64,000 nt of DNA, taken from positions 19,920,650 to 19,984,649 of the forward strand of contig NC_135559.1 of assembly GCF_964340395.1 (NCBI RefSeq), written 5' to 3'. How positions within the stretch are numbered: position 1 is the stretch's first letter; each line of letters opens with the position of its first letter. Position numbers and translations under genes: made by a program. This document shows, one piece after another, positions 1 through 64,000 of the stretch. Below the pieces are notes generated by a model that was given only the letters and a program-made list of their open reading frames with translations, did not search any database and was not told the origin of the DNA. This DNA is from Glandiceps talaboti. Lineage: Eukaryota; Hemichordata; Enteropneusta; Spengelidae.

Positions 1-3000
1 AATGCCGTGACTATAAACCATGCTTCATTTCATGTACATTTCTTCATCTATTCTAAAGCATACAAATTGAATTTAATACATAAATACCAATCGCATGCCA
101 TTGTGCTGAACAATCATCAATGTCCTTGGTATTTTCCATTCTATCATGGTGAATATTATATTTTATTTCTTTTATAAAATTATAATAAATTCGATTCGAT
201 TCATTCCATGCTAATGCTCCCTGTATAATCATAAAATGATTGAGCCATGACTATCAACGATGACAAAGTCTGATGTGTAAATTGTGAACCGATATTATTC
301 ATCATGTTGGCGTTCCTTCGGTTGTATGTATGTATGTATGTATGTATGTATGTATGTATGTATGTATGGATGTATGTGTGTATGTATGTATGTATGTATG
401 TATGAATGTATGTATGTGTGTGTGTATATGTATGTATGTATGTATGTGTGTGTGTATGTATGTATGTATGTATGTATGTATGTATGTATGTGTGTGTATG
501 TATGTATGTATGTATGTATGCATGTGTATGTATGTATGTATGTATTTATGTATGTATGTATGTATGTATGTATGTATGTATGCATGCATGCATGCATGCA
601 TGTATGTATGTATGTATGTATGTATGTATGCATGCATGCTTGCGTGCGTGCATGTGTGCATGCGTACAAGCGTGACTGCATGTGTGCGTGCGTGCGTGCG
701 TGCATGCATGTATGTATGTATGTATGTATGTATGTATGTATGTATGTATGTACGTAGATATTTAGGTAGGTAGGTAGGTAGGTAGGTAGGTAGGTATGCA
801 TATATGGTTGTTTATTTGCTTATTTGTTGATGTTTCCAACGGGCCAATGTAAAAGTAAAATTTGCATACAGTACTTTTCACCTTTCACATAGATCTAGAA
901 AGTTTATTTCACAGGGTTGTTTGTTATCATTACTTCATCATTTTATACGGGTACAATTTATAGGAGAGATATTCTGGTTTATTTTTGGAACGCTGCAATT
1001 ACTCGCCAGACATGAAATATTCCACCTATGTTGATAAAAAATATTGCAATCGTTCTAAAGTTTGAATTTTCTGTAATATTGTCATACAATGGGATATAAC
1101 CATGTTTTCTTTCAAATTTTGGGAATATGAACAATTTGTACAGCTCTGTGATGGTGTCGTGATACATGTCCGGGATACATGACAAGCAACATTGTTGAAT
1201 GTCCCAGGGGCGTTTTAGAAATTGTTTTACGCACAGCAGCTTCCCCAAGGGAAATCGCTATAACCATGAAAGTATGTATCGCCACGTTATAACACCACTA
1301 CAATACAATGCGACATCGCCGTTGTGTTGGCCTTCGGAAATAACTTGAATCGGACTCCTCCGGGTCCGAGGCCTCATAAAAGACAAACAATGGAGTAACA
1401 TATATTATACTATTGATGGCATACAATTCTAAAATGTTTTTTTTGTATTTAAGAATCTTTTTCTTTATTTCCATTTTGATCTGGGTCCCACAGAGCAGTA
1501 CATTACTAAAACAAACAAAAAGGCATGTTACAAGGTCTTGAATAGATCGCACAAACCAGACCACTTTTTCAAATGTGTGGTTAATTTCTTTTTTTTTTTA
1601 CAATTCTAAAATGTTTGTGTATTGTCGTTGGAACATAAAGCAATGTAACATGACAAACACCGACCAAACATTATTTTAACACCCACACTGCCAACAAGTC
1701 GGTGCATGACATTTTCAAATAATTGCAATTTTCAATCGTTTCCATTAATTAGTTTTAGGCTGAAAATATTTGGTGTGATTAAATACATTCAGAATGTATG
1801 ACTGGGGTCACTGATTACAACTCGTGCTTTTATTGAAAGATACAATTGTGAATGAACCATGCACCAGACTGTCTTGGATGACACAATGGAAGCCCAAAGT
1901 CTTGTATCGACCGTAAAAAAGGTCAGGTCACCAGACATGTATGTGCGCCCCTTCACCTACATAGTCCAGAAATCTATATCAGGTTATTCTGCAGCTAACA
2001 GGTATTTTTCTGACTCTGGTGTAAAATGAAATACAAATATAATTTAAATATGAGTAGTATACATAACTTATGGATGTCCTGAAAATATTCTCAGTAAATA
2101 GAGGCGATGTGATTACGTCATGTGACGTCATTGGTAATAAGTTGTTATTAGTTGTATCCATAACGGGTATCTATAGTACAGTACACACATCAGCCGACGA
2201 AAAAGGGCGTTGCCACTGCAATTATCGTCAAATTTTGACGAATGGTTATGATGTCGTGAATAATGATATACTGGTCCGGAGATGTCAAAATTCTGCCGAT
2301 TTACAATGCTTGGATTTTAACGTAATGACATGTAAATTTGGATGGATTTGTTTAGCCCTATGTGCACCAAGAAATATATATTTAGTTGTAGAAGAAGTTA
2401 CATTTATCTGCTGACGCGATTTTTTTTTCTCTAACTTGAACTTTGCAGCTCATAATTTCATAAACTATAAAGTATTTTGAATTCAAATCGAGTATTATAC
2501 TCCAAGTTGTATAAAACAAGCATTTTGTAAAACACTGCCGAACGTTTTGACTGTGCAAGGACAGACTATTTAAAGAGGTTTTTTCAAGGGCTGGCAATTC
2601 AAAAGTGACCGCCAAATTTGTGTATAAAGAAGGTTGCTTTGCAACGTATAATGTACAGTGTGGAATCCACAAGTTGTTGTTTACGCTACGCGTGACATTG
2701 AGGTTGATGGATTTGTGTAGACATTGTTCGACCAACCTTAAGTGGTATGTCAACGCCATGTCACTAAGCACACTGCAAGTCATACCTCAAAAATGGTTGA
2801 ATACATTGTAACCATGGTGAATGAAAACATGTTTCTTAATTAGTGTGAAAACAATTAACAGATGAAGCTAGCGAGACGAACTAGCAAATAGACAACCAGG
2901 TTGATAAATAGACCATCGGTTGGGATGGACAATGGAAGATAGACTAGTATACAATATGTCAACCAAAAATGCTTTGAATTAACAATTCAAATATTTGCAA

Positions 3001-8497: not shown

Positions 8498-9150
8498 GTA
8501 GGTATGTGTCTGTGTGTCTGTGTGTGTGTGTGTCTGTTGACACGATATCTAAAAAAAATACTGTAGTGATTCTAATGAAATTTGCTACACATCTTCCATA
8601 TGCTAAACACAAGAACTAACTAGATTGTGGTAAACATCCAAGGAACATCAATTTATCATTTGCATAATTAATGTTTTTAGTAATTAGGCTATATCTGAAG
8701 AATGCAAATTTCATATTTAATATTATTTGATATCTGCTGTAAAGCTTGTTGATGTAGCTTATAGTTTTAATGAATAATTTGCATAGTTAATGACATTTGG
8801 TAATTAGAGCAAACTTCAAATTCAATGTAAGTAACAAAGCATAGTTTGGCATAGTTTTTAGTTTAATGACTAATTTGCATGATTGTTCAAATTCAATTTA
8901 ATTCAATACATACATTAAACATAAGAAATACAATGCTTGTTGATGTATCTTATAGTTTTAATGAGCAGTTTGCATAATTAATGAGCTTTGGTAATTAGGC
9001 TATATTTTAAGAATGCAAACTTCAAAATCATATAATTTGGCACAGACATCAACCATAACGAAGCACGCATATCCTAAAAAGACTGGTGGCATAGTTTTTA
9101 TTTGTAATGATTAATGTGCAAAATTAATTATTTTTGGTAATAAGAATGTA
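8405..9150 (+). repeat. TGTC-bearing tandem-repeat element, copy 1
   Basis: Begins with a diverged ACCTCC end, then a G-run, a TGTC/TGTG microsatellite (8448-8535) and degenerate repeats of a unit containing TTTGCATAATTAATG followed by GGTAATTAGG and CTTCAAATTCAATAT. Same layout as 17412-18437. Exact GCATAATTAAT occurs at 8662-8672 and 8972-8982. Confidence 0.65.
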
Positions 9151-13537: not shown

Positions 13538-19599
<6,062 letters not shown>

Positions 19600-29355: not shown

Positions 29356-29745
29356 GTATTAATTTTACTATATTGAACATGTTGTGTATAGGGAAATTCA
29401 ATATAATACTATTAATAGGCTTTACCATGCTCAGTGATGTAAAAGTCACTTTCAACTTTACATAATACGACTTGTCAGGTTATGTAATTGCCAGGATTAT
29501 CCAAACCACAATAGCCATATCGTGGATGGGAAATTGGAATATATTGTGGATGTTTAAAGCAACTTGCTTTAGTCAATTTTTTGTACTTAAAAAACAGTGA
29601 GTAACAACATAGACCAAGTCAGTGTTTGGAACTCAATAAATTGCAAAAGGCATCGATGCACCACCACCATGTCAACTGTGCATGGAATGGATGAAGTTCA
29701 TGTAGTTATCAGGGAATAGTTTTTTCGTTCCACTAGGTTCTAATG

Positions 29746-29983
29746 CAATCTGATTAAAATCCGATGTAGATGTCAGCTAATTGTTCACTGCTATTATACC
29801 TTCGTTATTTTGCCTGAATTGACCTTCGTAGTACATGTTTACGTGTTTAGCCTGATCCTATGCGATCAGGCTAAAAACGTAAACAAGTACTACGAAGGTC
29901 AATTATGAATTAAGGCAAAATAACGAAGGTAAAATAGCAATGAATGATTAGCCGACATCTACATCGGATTTTAATCAGATTGA
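29746..29983. mobile_element. Foldback MITE with 8-9 bp target-site duplication
   Basis: Nearly the whole segment is one inverted repeat of about 115-bp arms around a short loop near 29861 (CCTGAT...ATCAGG). The outer ends are CAATCTGATTAAAATCC and its complement. GTTCTAATG flanks it on both sides (29737-29745 and 29984-29992), a duplication length typical of hAT (8) or Mutator (9) superfamilies. No ORF. Confidence 0.8.
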
Positions 29984-32900
29984 GTTCTAATGTTACAACA
30001 TGCATATGGAAATAATTTCCTCCTCCTTCAACCTCAATTGACCTTCATTACCAAGAATCTCCTTACGAATATCTGAAATCTGAAACACTGTGATCACTGG
30101 TAAATAAGTGTACAATTAGAAGATAGTTCCGATTATTTTGTCTGGTGTGGTTCCACAAAGCTGTCTCCAAGACGACGTACATTCGAGCCTACATATAACA
30201 AAACAACTGTGTGTAATACAATACCGTCACTCATCAGAATTGAGGACAAAACGACGTGTATTTACATGGATAACAATCGTAAGGGAATAACCTGTGGGTA
30301 ATTTCTAATCCATGTAGTTCTGTATGGACCAACAGATCTCTGGCATTAAGCCGCCAAGATGTTAAAAGATACATTAGGACTTAAGAAATGGTGAATTGGT
30401 TTTAATACCCTGTTAATCGAACGCACAATATTGAAATGCTTGTATATAATGTTCTTGACGCTGATGAGAAAAGAGTGATAAGTTAGAGTCAATTTTGGAC
30501 GTTCTTTATTCATGATCTAAAGCTGCATTAGTATAAGATATAGTACGCATTGTCTTGACACCAATGTGAACTATTGCGATAAATGATAATCCTTTCTTAA
30601 AGTAGTTGTAAAGTAGTTAAATACTTCCTTTTATCACGAATTTCAACACAATAAAACGATCAGTTACTTATGCAAATATGTCACGTATATTGATTATCGT
30701 AATTTGCATATAGTTTATGTTTTACTTATATCTAGGAACAAAACTAGGCTTACTGAAAGACACTGAAAGTTGTTGATATTGAATTCATATTATATAATTT
30801 ACTAAACGTTTTCTTTTATTTCGCAATAAGTTTAATTTTACCGTAATTTATTGTATGGAATGAAAGAAATGTTCAATCTTAATATAATGATTTGAACAAA
30901 ATGTGAAAGAAAATTCTAATTGGAGAACTCAGTAGAGAACATTTACAGAAGGTAGTGGGCAGACCCGGGTGCTGTTTGGACGTTGGCAATAAGTGGCGTA
31001 TCTATACCGGTACTAGGAAAGACAGGTTTCAGTTGAACTTTGGAAAGAAAGTATTATTTATCTCAGCGGCAAGTCAGGCGATAAAAGGACTGACTAAGAT
31101 TACTCCTGCCTAAACTGTTCTTGAGAATAAGCACGCTTTTAAAGATCACGTGTACCGGAACAGTGGAATTGAACATAAAGGTGTAGGGTGTATGCCACAG
31201 TACTGACGATCAATATGTGAGCCCATATTGCCTAGCAGCACATGCATTGTGAGTCTGTAAATTGTGCAAATTAGCGATCTCTAATATATTTTCAACTAGA
31301 TCTAAAATGTCAGCATTATTAAAATGGCATCATTATCTCACACATTCATACATATATAAAAGATAATAATTGAAAGCCATTATGAATGGAACATGGACAT
31401 TTGACAGAATGTCAATGTGGGTATCAAATCAAGATTCGTGACTACATAATATTAGCCTTTAAGGTAAAGAGTGCAATAATGTTGAAACCAATTAACTGGA
31501 TCAAAGTTATCAAATAAGCCACGCGATTTAAATCGATGGTTCACTACAGTGACTGTACACTCCTCGCTAATATGTATCTTATATCTCTATTGTACGCTGG
31601 CTTAACTTTGAATAAAAATGTGTCCAGTTAAAAATTGTAACTTTTTGCAGCAAATTAAAATTCTTTGTGCGGGAAATTACAAAAGAAGTGCACACGTGCA
31701 CTGACCACTGTGCATTTTCCGCGAGTAACAGTAGTCTTGAAAGTCTCCTTCATTTGATATGTCAGCTATTGAAGCTCAAAAAAAGACGGAAAAAGTCGTT
31801 CAACGTGAGGTCGCCTGCTATGCTGCATGCAGTGATTCCGAAGATGCGCTCGATCTCATTTACATCTTGTTCCTTATATTAAAACATTTGATACTGATAA
31901 AACGGCAGATCTCTTTTTGGAATATTTGGTGGCCCTGAAAAATTATTAAACTAGGTACGCAGTTTAAGATCCCCTCTTTGAAGATCCACTTTCAATAATT
32001 GTGTTCGACGTTGCCTTTGGTTAAAATGTTCTTTGATATAATTTTTTCATTTCACACTGACACTAGCGTTATTCCGCAATTCATTTTGAAGCAACAATTT
32101 GCTATGGAAAGAATGGCCCTGAATTTGTAAACAGAGCTGTACCTTCGACATCAAAATCCAAACTTCAATTGCCATTATAAAGATAATGACAAGGAGAATT
32201 CACTGAGTTCACCTTGGGTTCCGACGTAAACGAGGCCATACAAGTTTTGGGAGTTAGGTAAAGAAAATGGTTATTGTGTTGTTACTTATTAGAGAAAGCA
32301 TCATCCATTTTTTATCCTTTGAATGTGACATCTTTTCGGCAACTACTTTGAAAGATACGACCTTAGGCCAGAAAAAATGAAAAAGCTGTTCAACCTACCC
32401 ATACATTTTTTTCTTGTGATGGACAATATATCCTCATGCGAGCTTCGCATTTCTTTTCAAAATTAAGGACATTTCTTTATATTTTCTGAATAGTACATGT
32501 AACAATACACATTTGAGTCTATTCCAAATTGTATAATATACAGTGGTTTACTTGGCTCTGATGATGCATGCAAGCATGAATTGAGATTAAATTAAGCTGT
32601 TGCATATCCAATGTGCACTAAAAAGAATGGAACAATGGTTTACGACCATTGGATTGGGCTAGCTGAGCAGTCATTGGGCTATGAAAAGTCCGAAAGTCTT
32701 GAAATGTTTTGCTCTTTATTCGGGATTTTTGGAACCAAATTAAACTTCAGAAGAAGTCATTTACCAAGTGCACATCCGCAAAATATCTTTCAGCTTTGCC
32801 ACAACAAAATACACTTCCAGATAATATGTAATGCATAGCATAATTGTTTCAGTTCTGGTATTTCATTACCATAATTCAAGCATTGTAAGACTTTAAATTA

Positions 32901-38700: not shown

Positions 38701-38909
38701 TACAAAGAAAGGATAAAATATTACAGTTCAATTTACACACCAGTGTTAACATGAATAACAGACATAATTCTTGGCGTAGCCATGGTAGCGAAGGGTGTTG
38801 CTATTGACTGTAATTTTATTACATTATACAGGGGTCCGACTAGCTCGTAACTCCATAATGTAATATCATACTCGTCTTCTTTCATTTTATGTATATATAC
38901 ATATATATA

Positions 38910-39010
38910 CAGTAGACCCTCGCTAACTCGCGGGTGTCCGGGTCCATCAAGAAACCCGCGACTTAGCGAGGGCCGCGACTTAGCGAGGTGCTCATTATAT
39001 ATTCATAACC
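38910..39010 (+). mobile_element. pogo/Tigger-like transposon end
   Basis: After a TA, the sequence CAGTAGACCCTCGCTAACTC resembles the terminal repeats of pogo-type Tc1/mariner elements. A near-complementary GACTTAGCGAGG follows, so the end folds into a hairpin. I found no matching distal end, so this may be a truncated relic. Confidence 0.5.
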
Positions 39011-40223
39011 ACACATTAACACACGTCACACGTCAGCTTTTCTTCATTATTCAGTAATGTGCAGATGAAACTAGTACTGTACATGTTTTTATGAGTGCAA
39101 GTTTATGGGCGATATTCATAAAAAAAACAATAAGATACGCACGAAATCAAAGTTTCAATATTCAGTAAATCCAGGGTAAATCTTTTCAGTTCACGAACAT
39201 GACGGTATGTATTCGAAATTTATTGTGATGGACGCATGGACGTAATATTGTAACAGTCCTGGGTTAACAGTAAATCTTCGAGGAAGATTATCGTATAATT
39301 GTGTGACTCTCAAAGCATCAATCGCGGCTAGACTTTCTTTTTTGTCTTTTGCACGGTCGACAAACTAACAGTACAACTTACAAGCTCACGCCTGGCGGCC
39401 ATGGTAGGGCCAAGAAATGCTGTTGAATTTCCGGGTTGCGGAAGTGCAGTTTTGACTTTTATATCATCGAATAACGGGATTTGTTTTATATATTCTAAAA
39501 CAACAACTAATTTTTTATGTTTCTCAGTACAGCAACATTCCTAAATGATGGGGTTCAGTTGAGAAATCGCAAGGTTCGGCAACACGTGGCGTGATGCATG
39601 ATGTCGGTAGATATATAAACATAGCTATAGAGACGCAAGTGATGAACGTATTCAGTGATGAACGTATTCAGTTATTCGTAGACCGAAATTTCGTTATATA
39701 AATGACGTTTTCCTCAAAATTTTGAAGAATCAAAACGTTTTTAGGTGACTTCTAAATCAATCAAATCAAACGATATATTAATGCGAGACAAGCTTTAGTT
39801 TTTAATTTGTTTTTGTGGACAATGTTCGAATTCGACTGACGTATCCTGTGACTCGATTCTAACACGATCAATGCACCGTTCACCAGCCAGACGAAAATGG
39901 TCGACGTGCTTGTTGACTAGCCGAGAAGTGCATAAGGAACTTGTGAATGTGAGGCAGTCCGAATAAATAGAAGGCGATTGCTAACATCAAAGTCAAACCG
40001 CGACACCTCTTCATCGAAACACCAACGAGTTTGAAATTGGCAGGCGTACCATTTGTTTAAAAAAATACACAAAGAGGAGTTCCGAAAACAATAGGAAAAC
40101 AAAAGAAAAAATATATATATAGGAAGTCAGTGGTAAGATTTGTCCGTAGTACAGTGCTCGATACGTCTGCACGCAGAGCGGAGTATATGTTGAGGGTAGA
40201 AGAAAATCAAGTCGGGTTTTTCG

Positions 40224-40265
40224 TCTCTACAAGCCTGTTTCGTGAGTAAGTCACTCGTCAGGAGA
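40224..40265 (-). ncRNA. Hammerhead ribozyme (minus-strand copy)
   Basis: Read on the minus strand: stem I strand TCTC, core CTGACGA, stem II GTGA/TCAC with loop CTTAC, GAA, stem III ACA/TGT with loop GGCT, cleavage site GTA, then GAGA closing stem I. All invariant core positions are present and all three helices pair. Predicted cleavage follows the base at 40228. Confidence 0.82.
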
Positions 40266-40297
40266 TGTTTATGGAGATGGAAATGTTCGTGAGTAAA

Positions 40298-40339
40298 TCT
40301 CCTGACGAGTGATTTACTCACGAAACAGGCTTGTAGAGA
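40298..40339 (+). ncRNA. Hammerhead ribozyme (plus-strand copy)
   Basis: Stem I TCTC (40298-40301) with GAGA (40336-40339); core CTGACGA (40302-40308); stem II GTGA (40309-40312) with TCAC (40318-40321), loop TTTAC; GAA (40322-40324); stem III ACA/TGT (40325-40334) with loop GGCT; cleavage after A40335 in the triplet GTA. Further out, TTCG (from about 40285) can pair with CGAA (from 40340), leaving an internal loop suited to a stem I-stem II contact. It differs from the minus copy by one stem II loop base. Confidence 0.85.
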
Positions 40340-40370
40340 CGAAAAACCCGACTTGATTTTCTTCTACCCT

Positions 40371-40482
<112 letters not shown>

Positions 40483-45638: not shown

Positions 45639-48015
45639 TTACTTGGTTACTTGGTTACTTTGCTTACTTGGTAGTTTAGCTCCTATTTCCTTTGGGAAGA
45701 GCCCTCAACTTTTCTTTAAAACTGGTTATACTTGGTGCAGAAATAACTTCTTCGGGAAGAGAATTCCAGCTGTCCACAACTCTATTTCCAAAAAATTGTT
45801 TTCCGATTTCTGATCTGCTATTTTGCTTGAAGATTTTTAATGAGTGACCTCTCAATCCATGACGATGGGGAGATACGAAAAATGTCTCCGGTGGGGTTTT
45901 ATATCTATTAGTCATGTACTTATAAGTTTCCACCATGTCAGTTTGATGTCTTCTCTCCTCCAAGGGGGGCAAAATAATATCACTTGGACAGAGTCTAAGG
46001 CATCTCTTCTGCACCTTCTCAAGTAAATAAATATCTTGTTTCAATCTCGGATTCCATACGACCGAGGCATATTCTAGAATTGGCCTGATAATAGAGCAAT
46101 ATAATGTCAAAGTTTTTTCTCTAGTAAATTCACTGAAACATCTCTTAATCATGCCAATCCTTTGGTTGGATTTTTTACAAATATTCTTGATGTGTTGAGT
46201 AGGCTTAAGGTTGTTGCTAACGAGCACCCCTAAGTCCTTCTGGTTAGGCACTTCTTGGAGGTAAATTCCATTGAGAGAATAAGCATATTTGAAAGCAGCA
46301 TGAAAACGAAGTGCAACACATTTAGTAGCATTAAAACGGAGTAACCACTGCTGAGACCATGAAGAAAGGGCACATAAATCTTTCTGGAGCTGATTGCAGT
46401 CATGAATACTTGAAATGTTGTTGTAAATTTTTGTGTCGTCAGCAAACATTTTCGCTGTACTTTCCACTGCATCTGGCATGTCGTTGACAAAAAGCAAAAA
46501 TAGCATCGGCCCTAAGATTGTACCTTGCGGCACACCGCTAATCACAGATTTCCAAGTAGAGATCCCATTTCTCAGAACAACTCTTTGACGACGTCCAATA
46601 AGAAATGACTTTATCCACTGAATGAGATTCCCTCGTATACCAAGTTGGTGGAGTTTATAAATAAGTCTATGATGTGGTACTGAATCGAAAGCCTTCGAAA
46701 AGTCTAAGTAAATTACATCAGTTCCTTTAATTGATTTATCTTCATAGGCTTTAGTCCAGTCAGCAATACATTCTAAGAGTTGTGTAGTACAGGAACATTT
46801 TTTCTGAAAACCATGTTGCTGGCAGGATATAATGTTATTAGCTTCAGTAAAATCTAATAAAACATCGAGAACTAAACGTTCCATCACCTTGGCTACTTGA
46901 CTTGTCAGGGAAACTGGCCTATAGTTATTACAAACAGTTCTGGATCCCTTCTTATGTAAAGGCGTAACATTTGCATCCTGCCAGTCCTGAGGAACTACTC
47001 CGGATGATAAGGAGTGTTGAAAAATAGCAGCAAGGGGGACATCCAAATCTAGAACCTTGCGTAACACATTAACATGGATACTATCCGGCCCACAAGCCTT
47101 GTTAGGTTTTAAGGAAATGAGCTTTTCTCTGACACTAGTAATTGTAATACGCATCGTATATCTTGGTGAAGTAGTGTGGACATTAAATGGGATTGAATGC
47201 GATAGGGGTGGCTCATCTGTCAGTACACTACAAAAGAAGTCATTCAATAAATTTGCTTTTGATATATCATCACAGATTTTAACGCCATCCTGTTCTAAAA
47301 TGTCAATGGTTGATGATGAACGCATGAAATGTCTAGTATAGTTGAAAAACTTCTTGGGTTCAGTTTTGATTTGCTGAACAAGATTGTTCTCATAGTCACG
47401 TTTGGCCTGATGAACTGTCTGACGAACCTTTTCTTCAGCAATACCAGCTTGCATCTTATGAGCATAAAGATCACTAGATTTAGCACGGATAATGGCAGCA
47501 CGCCTTTTCCTCTTAGCTTTCTTGACAGACTTAAAATTCGACCAGGCAGGCTTGTGTCGTTGGTTAGATTTAACTAACTTGTGAGTAATAAATTTTTCCA
47601 GACAATCATAGTATTTATTCTTAAAAATCTCCCATTTCTGATTTATTGTCTTTTTAGCGAACTCCTGTTCCCAATCAATAGTACGGATCTCATTATTAAA
47701 ACCATCATAGTCTCCTTTTGAGTAAAGGTAAACTTTCCTTGGTGCATAATTTATTCGTGGAACTGGGATCGCTAGGGTAACATGACACATTCTGTGATCA
47801 CTTGTAGCAAACTTCTCTCCCACCTCTACCTTAATCACTATATCGTCATTTCCAGACAAAACAAGATCCAGAATATTCTCACCACGGGTAGGCTTGTCCA
47901 CATGTTGTGTCAGCATATTGTCTTCTATACATTCAAGGAATTTACGTGAAATCTCAGTGTTAGCTTCCATTGAGTCCCATTTAATATCACGAAAGTTAAA
48001 ATCACCTAGATGAGA
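45639..48015 (-). mobile_element. CR1-clade LINE, 5'-truncated, ORF2 open
   Basis: The minus-strand reading frame runs uninterrupted for about 770 codons to a stop at 45676. It begins inside the apurinic endonuclease at the catalytic GDFN motif and includes its last part (SDHR region), a complete reverse transcriptase (DFSKAFDSVPH, GVPQGTILGP, FADDTKIY) and the C-terminal domain (LEERRHQTDMVETYKY, WNSLPEEV). The 3' end has three copies of the octamer AAGTAACC, in the manner of CR1 elements, which end in short tandem repeats. The endonuclease N-terminus and 5' end are missing, as expected from incomplete reverse transcription. The intact frame suggests a recent insertion. Flanking duplication not found. 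Confidence 0.9.
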
Positions 48016-49892
48016 ATTTTTTTACAGATTACATGTAGGTCGTGTTTTGACAATTGAACATAATCGTGAAAAATTCAAAATTAACTTCACAAGTATCGCA
48101 CGGGTCAGAGCGGACTAAGCTTTGCACTTCCATACTTACTGTACACTAGGTAGCTACGTGCGATCTCGAGTTTGGTAGAAATGTCATTGATGTTCCCGTT
48201 ATTTTCCTTCCGTGTTCTAATTTTGAAAGTATCTGTTATGGCTGTTTTATGGTTGATTAAACTTGTATTTCCAAACCCAATGTCCCGTCTCAGAAAACAG
48301 TCAATAAAATCACAAACATGTGCTTCTCCGAGTTATCCCGATGTGTACGAGTACCACCCCAGCTAATTCAAAACAAACGCATAAATGCATACGTCGTGAG
48401 TACGGAGTCTTGTTTGGTCTCCGCTCTGTCTCCGTGCGTATGTTTGACTACGATGTCAGTCGATGTCATTTACAAAGCAAAGTCCCAAAGGAAAATTTTC
48501 TTTGTCAATCTGTGTTCGTCTAGAGATACTAATCCATTCCAATATCTGACCATATTAAAAAGTGTACGATTTCTACATGAATTCCAACCTGTGTCGCCAG
48601 AAACAGCATGAGTGGGTTGTGAACACATATGCACTCCTAGAAGAAAGCTTAGCGCTCTATTCTGAACAGCTTGGCATTTGTCTTGGTTTTATTTTTTTAA
48701 ATCTACACTGAAGAACAGTAATCTAGAATAGTAGCAACACATGCGTTATATAGCTTGGTGTACGACTTAAAACCAAAGTTCTTTAATTTTAAAGTTTTGA
48801 ATTTCGAATTTATTTTTATTTTTTTTGCTCTACTAGAGGAGTTTGCCAATGTTTCAAAAACAGCAGAAAATCCAAAAACTAATTGAAAACAACACCAAGA
48901 TATTTGTATAACGTACACACAACGACCTACAATGGCGCATGCGCAGACATACTCGAATGGGAACGCCACTCCAGGAAACGAAGGTGTTTTCATAGGAACT
49001 GGACGCATATATGTGAAGAGATAAAAAACTAAATTCTGCCTCAGACCCCCACCCCCACCCCCCACCCACCTTGTAACTAAGTTGGCCAAAATTGAAAAAA
49101 AAATGTTTCAGACAGCACAATCAATTTGTATTCACAATGAAACAGAAATGATCACATTTTTATTCTTTTTGAATGTAAAATAATATTTAAATTTATATGG
49201 AAATAGAGGTCAATCCCAACAATTTTACCTTTTTTGGGATGTAAGCAAAAGTTTAGGGTTGGCTACTTAAACTAGGGTCGGTCGGCTTATATACCATTTA
49301 TTTTCAGACACTTCGAACCAAAAAAAACTACTTGGCAAAAAATATTTTGTTTGCAATAGGCAGTACAGCGCTAGCGTTCAGTGTATTAAAACTCACCGTG
49401 ACCACTGACTCGTTCTCGTAACAAACGGTCGTCATGGAGATGGCAGCGACTGTCATTTTTTTTATCATCACATAAAGTGACATAAGCTTAGTTCGTGGAA
49501 TTAACATTTTAGTTGCTTAGCAGAGAGCTTAGGAAAAGTTGGTACAGAAAAAAAATATACCAGAGGACATATCTAATGGCTCCACTAGTAAGATTATACT
49601 GATGTGAGAACGTGGCCATGGCCATGGGATCATGTTAAATTCCGGATCTTAACACCTTCAAATAACTGAGACTGTCATGTTCATGTTAATACTCCATGTG
49701 AATTTTTATTTATTGATGATCAGAAATTAATATAAAAGTGAATTGACGACAAAATAATGTCTCTCTTTGGGGCAATCAACCCGCTTATTGAAAATGCAGT
49801 ACGCCTGTTTATCATATACGCGCAGGAGTTCTGCGCAAAGACATGTTACAGTAACTTTTAAAAAAATACAAATTGTATATCTGGGAATGCGG
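48016..49892. other. Intergenic region, LINE to ankyrin/SOCS gene
   Basis: Besides the LINE fragment at 48480-48870, it holds a family A-like MITE piece near 49200-49330. On the minus strand AATAAA (49710-49705) could serve the ankyrin/SOCS gene. Nothing else recognised. Confidence 0.5.
48480..48870 (-). mobile_element. Old LINE fragment, reverse-transcriptase C-terminal part
   Basis: Minus-strand translation gives TKLYNACVATILDYCSS, typical of the RT thumb, then in another frame AVQNRALSFLLGVH, SGDTGWNSC and RYWNGLVSLDEHRLTKK, a conserved C-terminal block of several invertebrate LINE clades. One frameshift separates the two parts and a stop follows at about 48465. It is unrelated in sequence to the adjacent CR1 copy and clearly older. 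Clade not assigned. Confidence 0.8.
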
Positions 49893-52991: not shown

Positions 52992-55411
<2,420 letters not shown>

Positions 55412-56526: not shown

Positions 56527-58271
56527 GTGAGTGTCATTTTGCCGACCATGCACTGTGCCAGAACTGTGCAAAGCAGCAAACGACAGCACAGGATCACAGC
56601 ACATTATTTTACATCAAAGTTGCTGAAGTTTAACAACACCCTCTACCCCAACGTCGACATGACGCCTCCCCATGTCACACTCACAGTTTCAATATTGCTC
56701 AGCTCCAGAGTTACTAATACGTACTGTATCAGGTGGCCGGGAAATATTCGATAGGTGATAGTACACACGGGGATTCAAAGACGGACAAGTTTTGTTTTGT
56801 TTCAATGTTTTCGGACTTGTTCAGGCTTGCACACAGAATCACCAATTTCATACCAGAACTACAGACTTTACGTGCGGAGTTTGTATTCGTGGAGAAATAC
56901 AATCATTTGACAAGTTAATCGCACTGGAGACAAAGTTATCGTTGGCAGAGAAAACTAACTTTTCTGAATTTTAGTTTTTTAGATTAATGTCATGTGGCCG
57001 AGTTCTTGTACTGGCTGAGATCGTAGCCAGCCAAATTCACCTCATCGAATGGCCGAGTTCTATCTTGTACTGGCTGACATCGTAGCTAGCCAAATTCACC
57101 TCATCGAATGGCCGGCCGAGTTCTCTTGTTTGAAAGTATTCAGCTGCCCATTTTGTCAGTCAAAAAATAGTACATGTACATGTATGTTAAGTACATCAAG
57201 TTAAAATACTTTTAGGATCTTTGTTGTTCTAGGGCAAGAGTGGACTGACAATACATAAGATACACATTTGTAGGGAGTTTGGGGTTGGGTTTAAGAAAAT
57301 CAAATACTATTACTAGACCCGGGTACTAGACTCACTGCCTATATCATGTATATGTACAAATGTAGTATAACCCAGATTTGTATTTTCTACAATGAATGGA
57401 TTCAGGCCCTATGTTCAGACTTTGGTATCATTTCTAGTCAGACACATTAGCAGATGAGTTTCATATTACAAATTATATCATTATGTAATTTAACAGTTAT
57501 TTTAGGCACAAAAGGGTTTGAACTTCATGTGAGTTCTTTAACATTATGATTTCTACATGTACCACCTTGATTACCTTGACCCATGGTATGATTTGTAAGC
57601 AATAAACAGATGGATGTAATTTATTTTGGAGTCTACATATGTATTGTATAGAGCTCTGAGTCAGGCATTACAACAAGTGTAGTCATATATTCAAACATAT
57701 ATTTACAAATGATTCTAGGTAAACTCTAAATGTGAATAACATGACTGACAATTTTCAACAAAACAAAACATAACAACAAGTCAATGAAATCAAATCAAAT
57801 CAAGCAGTTAACTAACTTGGCAAATATGAGTTCTAGGGCTTTGACATCTCTCTGTGATAATATAATCCATGGAATATATATTTGTAAGGCTAGTTAGATC
57901 ACATACACTCTTTCAAACGTCACCTTTGTTAGCACTGTTGTAAACATTATAATGTGATGTACAAATGTAGCAAGAACAATTTGTCTTTGTCTTTGTACAA
58001 TTTGTACCATGCTACCAGCCAGCACTCACTTCATAGTTTACATGCCTGATAGGGCTGAACAGTATGACATATCTTACAACTTCTAAATTTTTCTCAAAAT
58101 TGATTTTCACCTGTATTTGTCCTACAGCTGAAAACATGAATGCATTACTGAAAGCCTCTGACTAAGATTAGTAGGATTGTAAGATACTATAGGCTTGTTC
58201 ACTCGCTGCCACTAGATACATCATACATATAGCTTTGTGTGATTTTTGTTTCTCATATTATGTCTTTACAG
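56527..58271 (+). other. 5' UTR intron of the C5orf34-like gene
   Basis: No coding sequence recognised; ORFs at 56527-56974 lie in this intron and match nothing known. It includes a tandem duplication at 56996-57125. Confidence 0.4.
56996..57125. repeat. Tandem duplication, 55-59 bp unit
   Basis: Two units (56996-57050, 57051-57109) starting GGCCGAGTTC and ending CACCTCATCGAAT, then a third partial start. Each unit contains an imperfect palindrome around GGCTGAGATCGTAGCC. Confidence 0.85.
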
Positions 58272-61200: not shown

Positions 61201-63002
61201 TAATATTATTCTATTTGATACAACTAAACATCCATAAAGTTGCAAGAAGGAATGTTCATGGCCTCTGGGTTCATACTTAGTAATGAAAATTTCTACTGAC
61301 AGAGTCAAAAAATTTCTTGGAGGTGACTCCCAAATTTTCGCACATCACCATCATCAGGTGTGTACAACAATAGCTTATTGTAGTACAACCCTGATAATGC
61401 TAATGAGATTTCAGCGAAAATTAGGGGCTTTGCTTCCCAGAAATATTTTGACTGTGAGTAGAAAGTTTCATTACAACTGGTAATGGTATCTATAAAGTTA
61501 TTTAGTCATGATAATTTTGTGAAATAATATGACAGAACCCCATGGTGGTATGGCTTACTCAGACTTGTCAGTGCTTGTCGTGTTCTCTGTTGTAGCTACA
61601 TAACAAATCCTGAAAGTATAGCAGAGTGCAATACCTGTGAGTACCCACACTGAAACTCACTCATCAAGGGGTTTTGTAGCGCTGCCACTCAATTTGCTAT
61701 CCTAACTGACATTTTGATTTTCAATTTTGCTGTCCTTTCCTCATGTACAATGATAGCTGTGTTCCACTAGTCTTGAATGGCATTCCTGTAACAGTATATA
61801 CCGTTATTTGTTGAGTACGTCATACTTTATACTTAAATCATGTCATCAGCTCACATGCTGAATCCACAATTAGGTGTAATCATGGAAATGCAACCTCACT
61901 CTAAATACCTATGTTGTCCTCTATTTAAATGTACGCTAATGTTTTGCACACATTGTGTGAGGTGGGGCATGGCTTCTAGACCAGTGGAATACTGCTATCA
62001 TTGTTGTAGATGAGGAGGGACAGCGAAATTCAAAATCAAAATGTCAGTTAGGATAGCAAATTGAGAAGTCCAAATCAACAAATATGCTTGTAAAAAATGT
62101 GTATCTGAATCAATCAATCAGGCGTTCATTTGCATAAATATTTTGTGGGATTACATATCATATCATTATCATATAATTATAATACTATGGTGTAGTACTA
62201 TCATATCTTTATTACAGACTTCATTGGGGTAGTAGACCTGTGGTTGAAGTTTACCCAGGGGATGGATCCATCATACGAAGTAAAGGCCCCACTGGATGCT
62301 TCTTTACACAGTATTGGTATGAGAATTCCATGATAGAGGAGAGAGTGTACTCAGCAGAGAATCCACCCCCTGATACAACCAAACTACAGTATTCTTTACG
62401 GAGACTTATTGGTACTGCAGCAAGGTAAATTATAGTAAAATAGAAATGAGAAATAGATGATACATGTACATATACTGATTTTAGTCTAAGCAGAAAATTG
62501 GTTTCTGTTTTCAAAATTGTAATGCTTTCAGTCATGAGGGCCTGTCAAAAAAAAACAGAGCTTGACTATAATGAACCTACCTCATCCAGACACAGTGATT
62601 TCTCTACACTGTAACGCTGACCTTCTCACAATCCAGAGCGTATTTTCTGCTGACGAATCGGTGCAAGCAGTATGTCTCAGATGGTGTCATAAAGATGCCA
62701 GGCCTGTGGTTTACAACAAATTCAAAAGTGTTGTGTGAAGATGAAGCCATCTTGTAGGTACTCTTATTTTACACATAACGATATTAATTTATACCATGTA
62801 CATGTAACTATACATATAGTTTGTATCAGTCCATATTATACACATATCTTAGCATACACAGGAGGTTGAAAGAAATGTATGTTTTTCTTGTAGTTCCTTT
62901 CTTTCAATTTCATGTATCATTTTTTTCAATTGTAGGTTGTTTCACCACATAAGACACCAAGATTCATCCATGGTGGACTTCTATTCTAACTGTTGTTGGA
63001 AG
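58293..63002 (+). CDS. C5orf34: C5orf34 homologue, first five coding exons
   Basis: Exons 58293-58462, 59351-59480, 60308-61059, 62218-62424 and 62936-63002 join in frame to 442 codons; the rest lies beyond the window. Matches to the human protein as I recall it: YTDGSQLQLSPCGAGF (24-39), QQRTQFVTSEFR, IHHIKW, HKQEFNVRFLAKVS, WLVQHHSVASCPSHWKQAL, CPTSHLHMW, VEVYPGDGSIIRSKG and SNCCWK. All introns have GT/AG ends; the last exon was placed by its fit after RRLIGTAAR. The human protein is about 638 residues, so about two thirds is present. The domain is uncharacterised, with weak resemblance to polo-box-like folds in some annotations that I cannot confirm. No transmembrane or signal segment is visible. 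Introns 1, 3 and 5 are full of MITEs. Confidence 0.9.
58553..58742. mobile_element. Palindromic MITE in C5orf34 intron 1
   Basis: Terminal inverted repeats of about 40 bp (ACTAGTACCAAGACATATG at left, complement of ACTAGCATTGGTATAATT at right, both with GTTATTC then CCAATA). An inner inverted pair around CAACCCTT adds a second hairpin. ATATC flanks both sides as a possible target-site duplication. Confidence 0.7.
61687..62065. mobile_element. Palindromic MITE in C5orf34 intron 3
   Basis: Inverted repeats of about 85 bp: CTCAATTTGCTATCCTAACT near the left end is complemented near 62065, continuing through a block containing GACATTTTGATTTT and ending near CCACTAG. The centre is about 190 bp of unpaired sequence. 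Non-coding. Confidence 0.78.
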
Positions 63003-63648: not shown

Positions 63649-64000
63649 TAGACTCTACTCTCAGTCCTCGGAGCTTCGCACTGCTAAAAGGGCTGTTTTT
63701 TTATATACCGACATCAACCATATCATTGTACTTGAATATCCTTGTAGTGTGCGCCCCCTCATCAACCACATAGGGCTAACTATTCGTTGATGCCCCAAGC
63801 TTCGCGATAACACTGAGCATTGCAGTAACACATCAATGAATGGTTACCGTTAGTCCTATGTGGTTGAAGAGGGCCCACAGTACAAGGATATTCAAATACA
63901 ATTACGTGATAGATATCGGTACATAAAAAAACAACCCTTTTAGCAATGCAAATTTTAAACTCCGAGGAATGTGAGAGAGTCTCAGTCTAAAGTGCAACCA
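63649..64000. mobile_element. Foldback MITE at the right window edge
   Basis: Arms of about 140 bp (63649-63786 and about 63835-64000) pair with few mismatches; examples are GCTAAAAGGGCTGTTTTTTT and TATCCTTGTA near CCACATAGG. The right limit may lie beyond the window. Confidence 0.75.

What the first reader, a model, noticed from the sequence alone, without database searches (positions are those of the whole stretch)
40224..40339. Two complete hammerhead ribozymes in the opposed arms of one inverted repeat
Seen directly: both arms hold every invariant hammerhead core base, three fully paired helices, and a permitted GUA cleavage site; they differ in one stem II loop base. They lie on opposite strands 32 nt apart. 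Hammerheads are known in Penelope-like termini and small tandem retroelements, usually in direct tandem order. Here a transcript of either strand would contain one active copy plus the complement of another, so self-cleavage would compete with long hairpin folding.
Basis: partly seen in the sequence, partly recalled or inferred. Interest (0 to 1): 0.78.

Follow-up and report, generated by a model that had tools for sequence, protein, structure and literature searches.

The report
Back-to-back hammerhead ribozyme motifs, mobile-element end
A short DNA hairpin in an animal genome carries the sequence pattern of a known self-cutting RNA once in each arm, most likely because the end of a mobile element was copied back to back; it is a small curiosity, and the RNA is predicted to fold into one long hairpin that hides both ribozymes.

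Summary
The window is animal DNA. 40184-40266 and 40297-40379 are 83-nt inverted arms, 99% complementary, 30 nt apart. Each carries a compact type I hammerhead pattern: complete core, helices I/II/III of 4/4/3 bp, GUA cleavage site. A strict descriptor finds only this pair in 64 kb and gave one hit in 2000 shuffled windows. "Complete ribozymes" is less secure. Rfam lists no family at gathering; the best hammerhead match, 11.4 bits against a cut-off of 48.5, uses another pairing. Folding puts the hammerhead state 46-75 kcal/mol above the long hairpin in RNA spanning both arms, and the plus copy also has a local 14-bp competitor. Best explanation: a truncated Penelope-like (or related hammerhead retroelement) end, duplicated head to head beside an AT tract, both ribozymes masked. 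Inverted Penelope pseudo-LTRs with palindromic junctions are described (PMC3846280), as are hammerheads in pseudo-LTRs, so the arrangement is largely predicted by known biology. Copy number and element identity stay untested: the genome search was unreachable in 14 attempts, and no relative was found in the mostly viral and prokaryotic collections searched.

The parts
40184..40266 (-). left arm of the inverted repeat (hammerhead plus tail, read on the minus strand)
   Evidence: 82 of 83 positions complementary to the right arm
40297..40379 (+). right arm of the inverted repeat (hammerhead plus tail)
40224..40265 (-). hammerhead type I pattern, minus copy; C3 at 40261; predicted cleavage between 40228 and 40227
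40298..40339 (+). hammerhead type I pattern, plus copy; C3 at 40302; predicted cleavage between 40335 and 40336
40267..40296 (.). 30-nt spacer between the arms (hairpin loop)
40286..40324 (+). local 14-bp hairpin (40286-40299 with 40311-40324, 11-nt loop) that competes with the plus hammerhead; 40286-40289 could instead pair with 40340-40343 as distal helix I
   Evidence: (MIR8001 alignment shows the two strands)
40340..40375 (+). tail between plus ribozyme and outer end; the end is 40 nt past the predicted cleavage site
   Evidence: role inferred from PLE insertion ends
40188..40223 (-). mirror tail of the minus copy
40375..40480 (.). (AT)53 tract directly beside the right arm; the left arm is bounded by TATA only

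Best explanation
This is the 3' end of a hammerhead-bearing animal retroelement, most likely a Penelope-like element (PLE) pseudo-LTR, present twice head to head without its coding part and set beside AT-rich DNA. Inferred origin: reverse transcription entered at an AT-rich nick, was cut short soon after the ribozyme, and a snap-back or template jump of the new strand copied the end in inverted orientation. Shown: the two motifs, the inverted arms, the AT tract, the local competing hairpin, and the folding energies. Inferred: the element's identity, the snap-back step, and that the ribozymes are now silent in any RNA spanning both arms. One could act only in RNA that starts inside the spacer or whose arm is otherwise freed from the other arm.
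For: A compact hammerhead pattern that 2000 shuffled windows gave once; arms with common outer ends 40 nt past the cleavage sites; AT-rich flank. PLEs: hammerhead at the pLTR/ORF junction, insertion ends at reverse transcription start sites downstream of it, AT-rich target cleavage (PMC11167929 passages); inverted head-to-head pLTRs with palindromes at the junction, read there as self-priming (PMC3846280 passages); 5' truncation and inverted pLTRs as PLE traits (PMC8969392 passages). Folding.
Against: No sequence relative was found, so the match is one of layout. No PLE protein: Pfam scans of 15 of the 22 ORFs of 120 aa or more (the 7 left out are microsatellite translations) and of 11 of the 49 ORFs of 45 aa or more around the repeat gave two RVT_1 ORFs and no GIY-YIG domain. 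In the Anolis PLE the ORF starts at stem II; here there is no ATG at that place and the frame through helix II stops after 15 codons. The stretch from cut site to end is 40 nt here; the positions given for the Anolis PLE imply about 85-92. No second copy of the arms in the window (BLAST). No target-site duplication beyond TATA. PLE hammerheads usually lack helix III (PMC6155905, PMC7761336 passages), whereas this one has three pairs. Rfam negative.
Confidence: 0.55

Rival explanations
1. A foldback DNA transposon (MITE) of about 188 bp, TGTTGAGGG...CCCTCAACA, with TA or TATA target duplication, whose long terminal inverted repeats happen to hold, or have captured, a hammerhead.
For: Near-perfect arms with common outer ends and TATA on both sides. 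Other imperfect foldbacks occur in the window, e.g. 29738-29990.
Against: TIR-type MITEs have no known reason to carry a hammerhead (recalled; one paper search joining the terms, listed 3 papers, of which I read none for this). No second copy in 64 kb.
Confidence: 0.21
2. Two monomers of a non-LTR retrozyme (small non-autonomous hammerhead retroelement), fused in opposite orientation and truncated.
For: Short helix III closed by a tetraloop, as described for invertebrate retrozyme hammerheads (PMC7229834, parts 2 and 3 of 6 read).
Against: Retrozymes are direct tandem repeats of 150-450 bp; here the arms are 83 nt and opposed, and no tandem partner exists in the window.
Confidence: 0.13
3. The hammerhead pattern is a chance feature of a hairpin-forming repeat with no ribozyme ancestry.
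For: No Rfam hammerhead hit at gathering; the local 14-bp hairpin is far more stable than the hammerhead; the simple core pattern alone is at chance level.
Against: One strict hit in 2000 shuffled windows. Shuffles do not model hairpin-rich repeats, and one count is a rough estimate, so the true rate may be higher.
Confidence: 0.11

Closest known systems
Penelope-like element pseudo-LTRs (hammerhead: e.g. Poseidon of Anolis, PAc; inverted pLTRs: Penelope families of Adineta vaga)
   Same: hammerhead not far from the insertion's 3' end, AT-rich insertion sites (PAc); inverted head-to-head pLTR pairs with palindromic junctions (Adineta)
   Different: no coding region here and no ATG at helix II; arms of 83 nt rather than the 181-218 bp given for Adineta pLTRs; a 3-bp helix III where PLE hammerheads usually have none; the Adineta paper does not mention hammerheads (listing: 0 occurrences)
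Metazoan non-LTR retrozymes (coral, mussel, axolotl)
   Same: type I hammerhead with short helix III and tetraloop; small size
   Different: direct tandem repeats giving circular RNA; here an inverted pair and no tandem in the window
Hammerheads in both polarities of viroids and delta-like circular RNAs
   Same: one hammerhead on each strand (abstract of PMC9608096, passage)
   Different: those lie in a replicating circular RNA; here a chromosomal inverted repeat, where the two are copies of one sequence
TIR-type foldback elements/MITEs
   Same: close inverted arms, TATA at both ends
   Different: no transposase relationship or copy family shown

Membership tests
Hammerhead ribozyme type I | core C3 U4 G5 A6 N7 G8 A9, G12 A13 A14, A15.1-U16.1, H17 | tested here: met
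   both copies; core numbering recalled
Hammerhead ribozyme type I | three helices; open end at helix I | tested here: met
   4/4/3 bp; distal helix I pairing only in the plus copy
Hammerhead ribozyme type I | reaches the Rfam family score | tested here: not met
   the only hammerhead listed is Hammerhead_3 at 11.4 of 48.5 bits. A Hammerhead_1 match could be hidden behind it by clan filtering only if weaker
Hammerhead ribozyme type I | loop I-loop II tertiary contacts | not tested
   loop II is UUUAC/CUUAC; no 3D or contact test made
Hammerhead ribozyme type I | self-cleavage | not testable with these tools
   needs an RNA assay; folding is unfavourable
Penelope-like element | RT plus GIY-YIG ORF linked to pLTRs | tested here: not met
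   none found (15 of 22 ORFs of 120 aa or more, 11 of 49 smaller ones near the repeat). The locus is therefore not filed as a PLE, only as a possible solo fragment of one
Penelope-like element | inverted or tandem pLTRs, hammerhead in pLTR, AT-rich target | tested here: inconclusive
   arrangement fits; no sequence homologue available
Non-LTR retrozyme | direct tandem repeats of 150-450 bp with one hammerhead each | tested here: not met
   BLAST of the arms finds only the two arms in the window
TIR MITE | many copies with both TIRs and a fixed duplication | not tested
   genome search not answered (14 calls)

The most novel reading that the evidence does not exclude
A mobile foldback family whose two terminal inverted repeats each encode a hammerhead, so that both strands carry a ribozyme and the double-stranded hairpin acts as a switch: cleavage occurs only when transcription starts between the arms, while read-through RNA becomes long double-stranded RNA for silencing.
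Probability: 0.08. Interest if true: 0.65.

Novelty: new member of a known kind. Interest (0 to 1): 0.33.

Why it matters
If the origin is right, the locus is a small fossil of how hammerhead retroelements make inverted ends. It is also a simple natural case of a ribozyme masked by its own complement, which could be used to ask whether hammerheads act before or after reverse transcription. As a single locus without copies or RNA data its weight is modest.

Tried and rejected
Rfam matches other than hammerhead (LhrA E 6.3e-05, MIR7504 E 0.0011, pestivirus UTR E 0.033, further microRNAs, RUF, snoR11, ARRPOF, rpl16 intron, Va-907) are all below gathering by wide margins (e.g. LhrA 26.6 of 100 bits, MIR7504 31 of 83). 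The alignments shown follow the long hairpin, the 14-bp hairpin or the AT tract; rejected as structure-driven chance.

Exact or degenerate patterns of the ribozyme gave nothing in viral contigs or genome contigs. blastn of the 196-nt repeat gave nothing in plasmids or phages. These collections hold mostly viral and prokaryotic DNA, so absence there says little about an animal element.

A protein-space search with a conceptual translation of the repeat found no candidate. The organism was not identified: one search returned the window's own GPCR on a 25 Mb contig and 29 distant proteins (the named ones from animals); (best 120 of 5383 shown) gave as its best named RT relative a record cut off at '[Stron', which I read as a sea urchin.

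A broader hammerhead descriptor, with one or more helix III pairs, found no third copy in the window. The simple core pattern alone is at chance level (25 matches against a mean of 18.2). The folding energies were not benchmarked on a known active hammerhead, and nearest-neighbour energies ignore core and loop-loop contacts; the 5-10 kcal/mol deficit of the isolated motifs may therefore not mean inactivity, but 46-75 kcal/mol can hardly be bridged that way (inference).

After the one check of the report I scanned more ORFs, added the missing ATG and the tail-length difference as evidence against, and lowered the main confidence from 0.58 to 0.55, raising the three rivals by 0.01 each.

Full report
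What is there. The window is animal DNA: an ammonium transporter in separate pieces, so with introns (inferred), many ACAT and AT microsatellites, a GPCR placed on a 25 Mb contig, and two reverse transcriptase ORFs. At 40184-40266 and 40297-40379 lie two 83-nt arms, 99% complementary, 30 nt apart, differing at 40250 only. In my own scan for close inverted repeats (arms of 24 nt or more) this repeat ranks first; the next five rows are mostly AT tracts, and the longest other row is 45 nt at 29813-29908.

The hammerhead pattern. Each arm holds CTGACGA, helix II GTGA/TCAC with a 5-nt loop, GAA, helix III ACA/TGT with loop GGCT, A17, and helix I TCTC/GAGA. The descriptor finds these two hits and no other in the window, and a looser one adds none. 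In dinucleotide shuffles of the whole window there were 2 hits in 200, then, with narrower loop limits, 11 relaxed and 1 strict in 2000. The two arms are copies of one another, so this is one event, with a chance of roughly 5 in 10,000 per 64 kb under the strict rule, an estimate that rests on a single shuffled hit. Against it, Rfam release 15 lists no family at gathering for the window, no hammerhead among 16 matches for 421 nt at E up to 10, and for 86 nt only Hammerhead_3 with 11.4 bits against 48.5, in a pairing other than the one proposed. I take the pattern as probably of hammerhead ancestry, not as a proven ribozyme. PMC7229834 reports more than 6000 type I motifs, minimal or canonical, in one coral genome, so such motifs are common in some animals.

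Folding. RNA spanning both arms folds into one hairpin of -162.5 kcal/mol. Forcing the hammerhead costs 66-75 kcal/mol for the plus copy in transcripts starting at 40150 or 40184 and 46-58 for the minus copy in transcripts starting at 40420 or 40379; with part of the opposite arm present it costs 41-42 (plus, start 40240) and 21-26 (minus, start 40320). Starting within the spacer, the plus copy still pays 14-21 kcal/mol (starts 40267, 40280), because 40286-40299 pairs with 40311-40324. With most of that strand removed (starts 40292, 40296) it pays 5-10. The minus copy pays 5-9 with starts from 40296 to 40267. These energies leave out core and loop-loop contacts and were not benchmarked on a known active hammerhead.

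How it most likely arose. PLEs carry a hammerhead at the junction of pseudo-LTR and ORF; in the Anolis element the ORF begins at stem II, the cut site is 26 bp into the ORF, reverse transcription starts 111-118 bp into it, AT-rich DNA is cleaved, and the hammerhead cut only when protein was added (PMC11167929, passages). In Adineta, pseudo-LTRs are often inverted and head to head, with palindromes at the junction, which the authors explain by self-priming (PMC3846280, passages). Here the arms end 40 nt past the cleavage sites, point outward, meet head to head, have a small palindrome at the inner end of the plus copy (40286-40324), and abut (AT)53. That is the layout expected of a truncated, inverted solo PLE end. 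It is a match of layout, not of sequence. No relative was found. No PLE protein is among 15 of the 22 ORFs of 120 aa or more (the other 7 are microsatellite translations) or 11 of the 49 ORFs of 45 aa or more around the repeat. There is no ATG at helix II, and the frame there stops after 15 codons. The 40-nt tail is shorter than the 85-92 nt that the Anolis positions imply. Helix III of three pairs is closer to invertebrate retrozymes than to PLEs, whose hammerheads usually lack it. No duplication beyond TATA flanks the arms.

What is known. In what I saw (search listings; parts 2 and 3 of 6 and passages of PMC7229834; passages of PMC11167929, PMC3846280, PMC7761336, PMC8490949, PMC6155905 and PMC8969392) I found no explicit account of two hammerheads facing each other in one chromosomal inverted repeat. 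The papers of Cervera and de la Pena 2014 and Luense 2017 are not held, so I cannot say that it is unreported. Since inverted pLTRs and hammerheads in pLTRs are each described, the combination is expected.

Verdict. Real pattern, correct coordinates, plausible retroelement origin; activity doubtful in RNA spanning both arms; family identity and copy number untested because the genome search did not complete. Modest interest.

Noticed in passing
38908-39000: Sequence cagtagaccctcgctaactcgcgg... with a partly inverted counterpart (cgcgacttagcgaggg, tandem copy at 38956-38988), flanked by AT-rich DNA; resembles a pogo/Tigger-type terminal repeat (recalled, not tested).
   Followed up: no
29738-29990: Nested imperfect inverted repeats around a centre near 29860 (arms of 33, 37 and 45 nt): a foldback-like element.
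   Followed up: no
45679-48021 (-) and 53377-55326 (+): Two reverse transcriptase ORFs (RVT_1, the first also with an endonuclease domain); the second sits directly after a long ACAT/ACAC array.
   Followed up: partly
17717-18190 and 8674-9144: A 148-bp tandem repeat lying between two ammonium transporter pieces, with diverged relatives about 9 kb upstream.
   Followed up: no
57004-57114: Two 52-nt copies, 96% identical, 59 nt apart start to start.
   Followed up: no
61683-62070 and 63675-63952: Further imperfect close inverted repeats (arms 39 and 30 nt).
   Followed up: no
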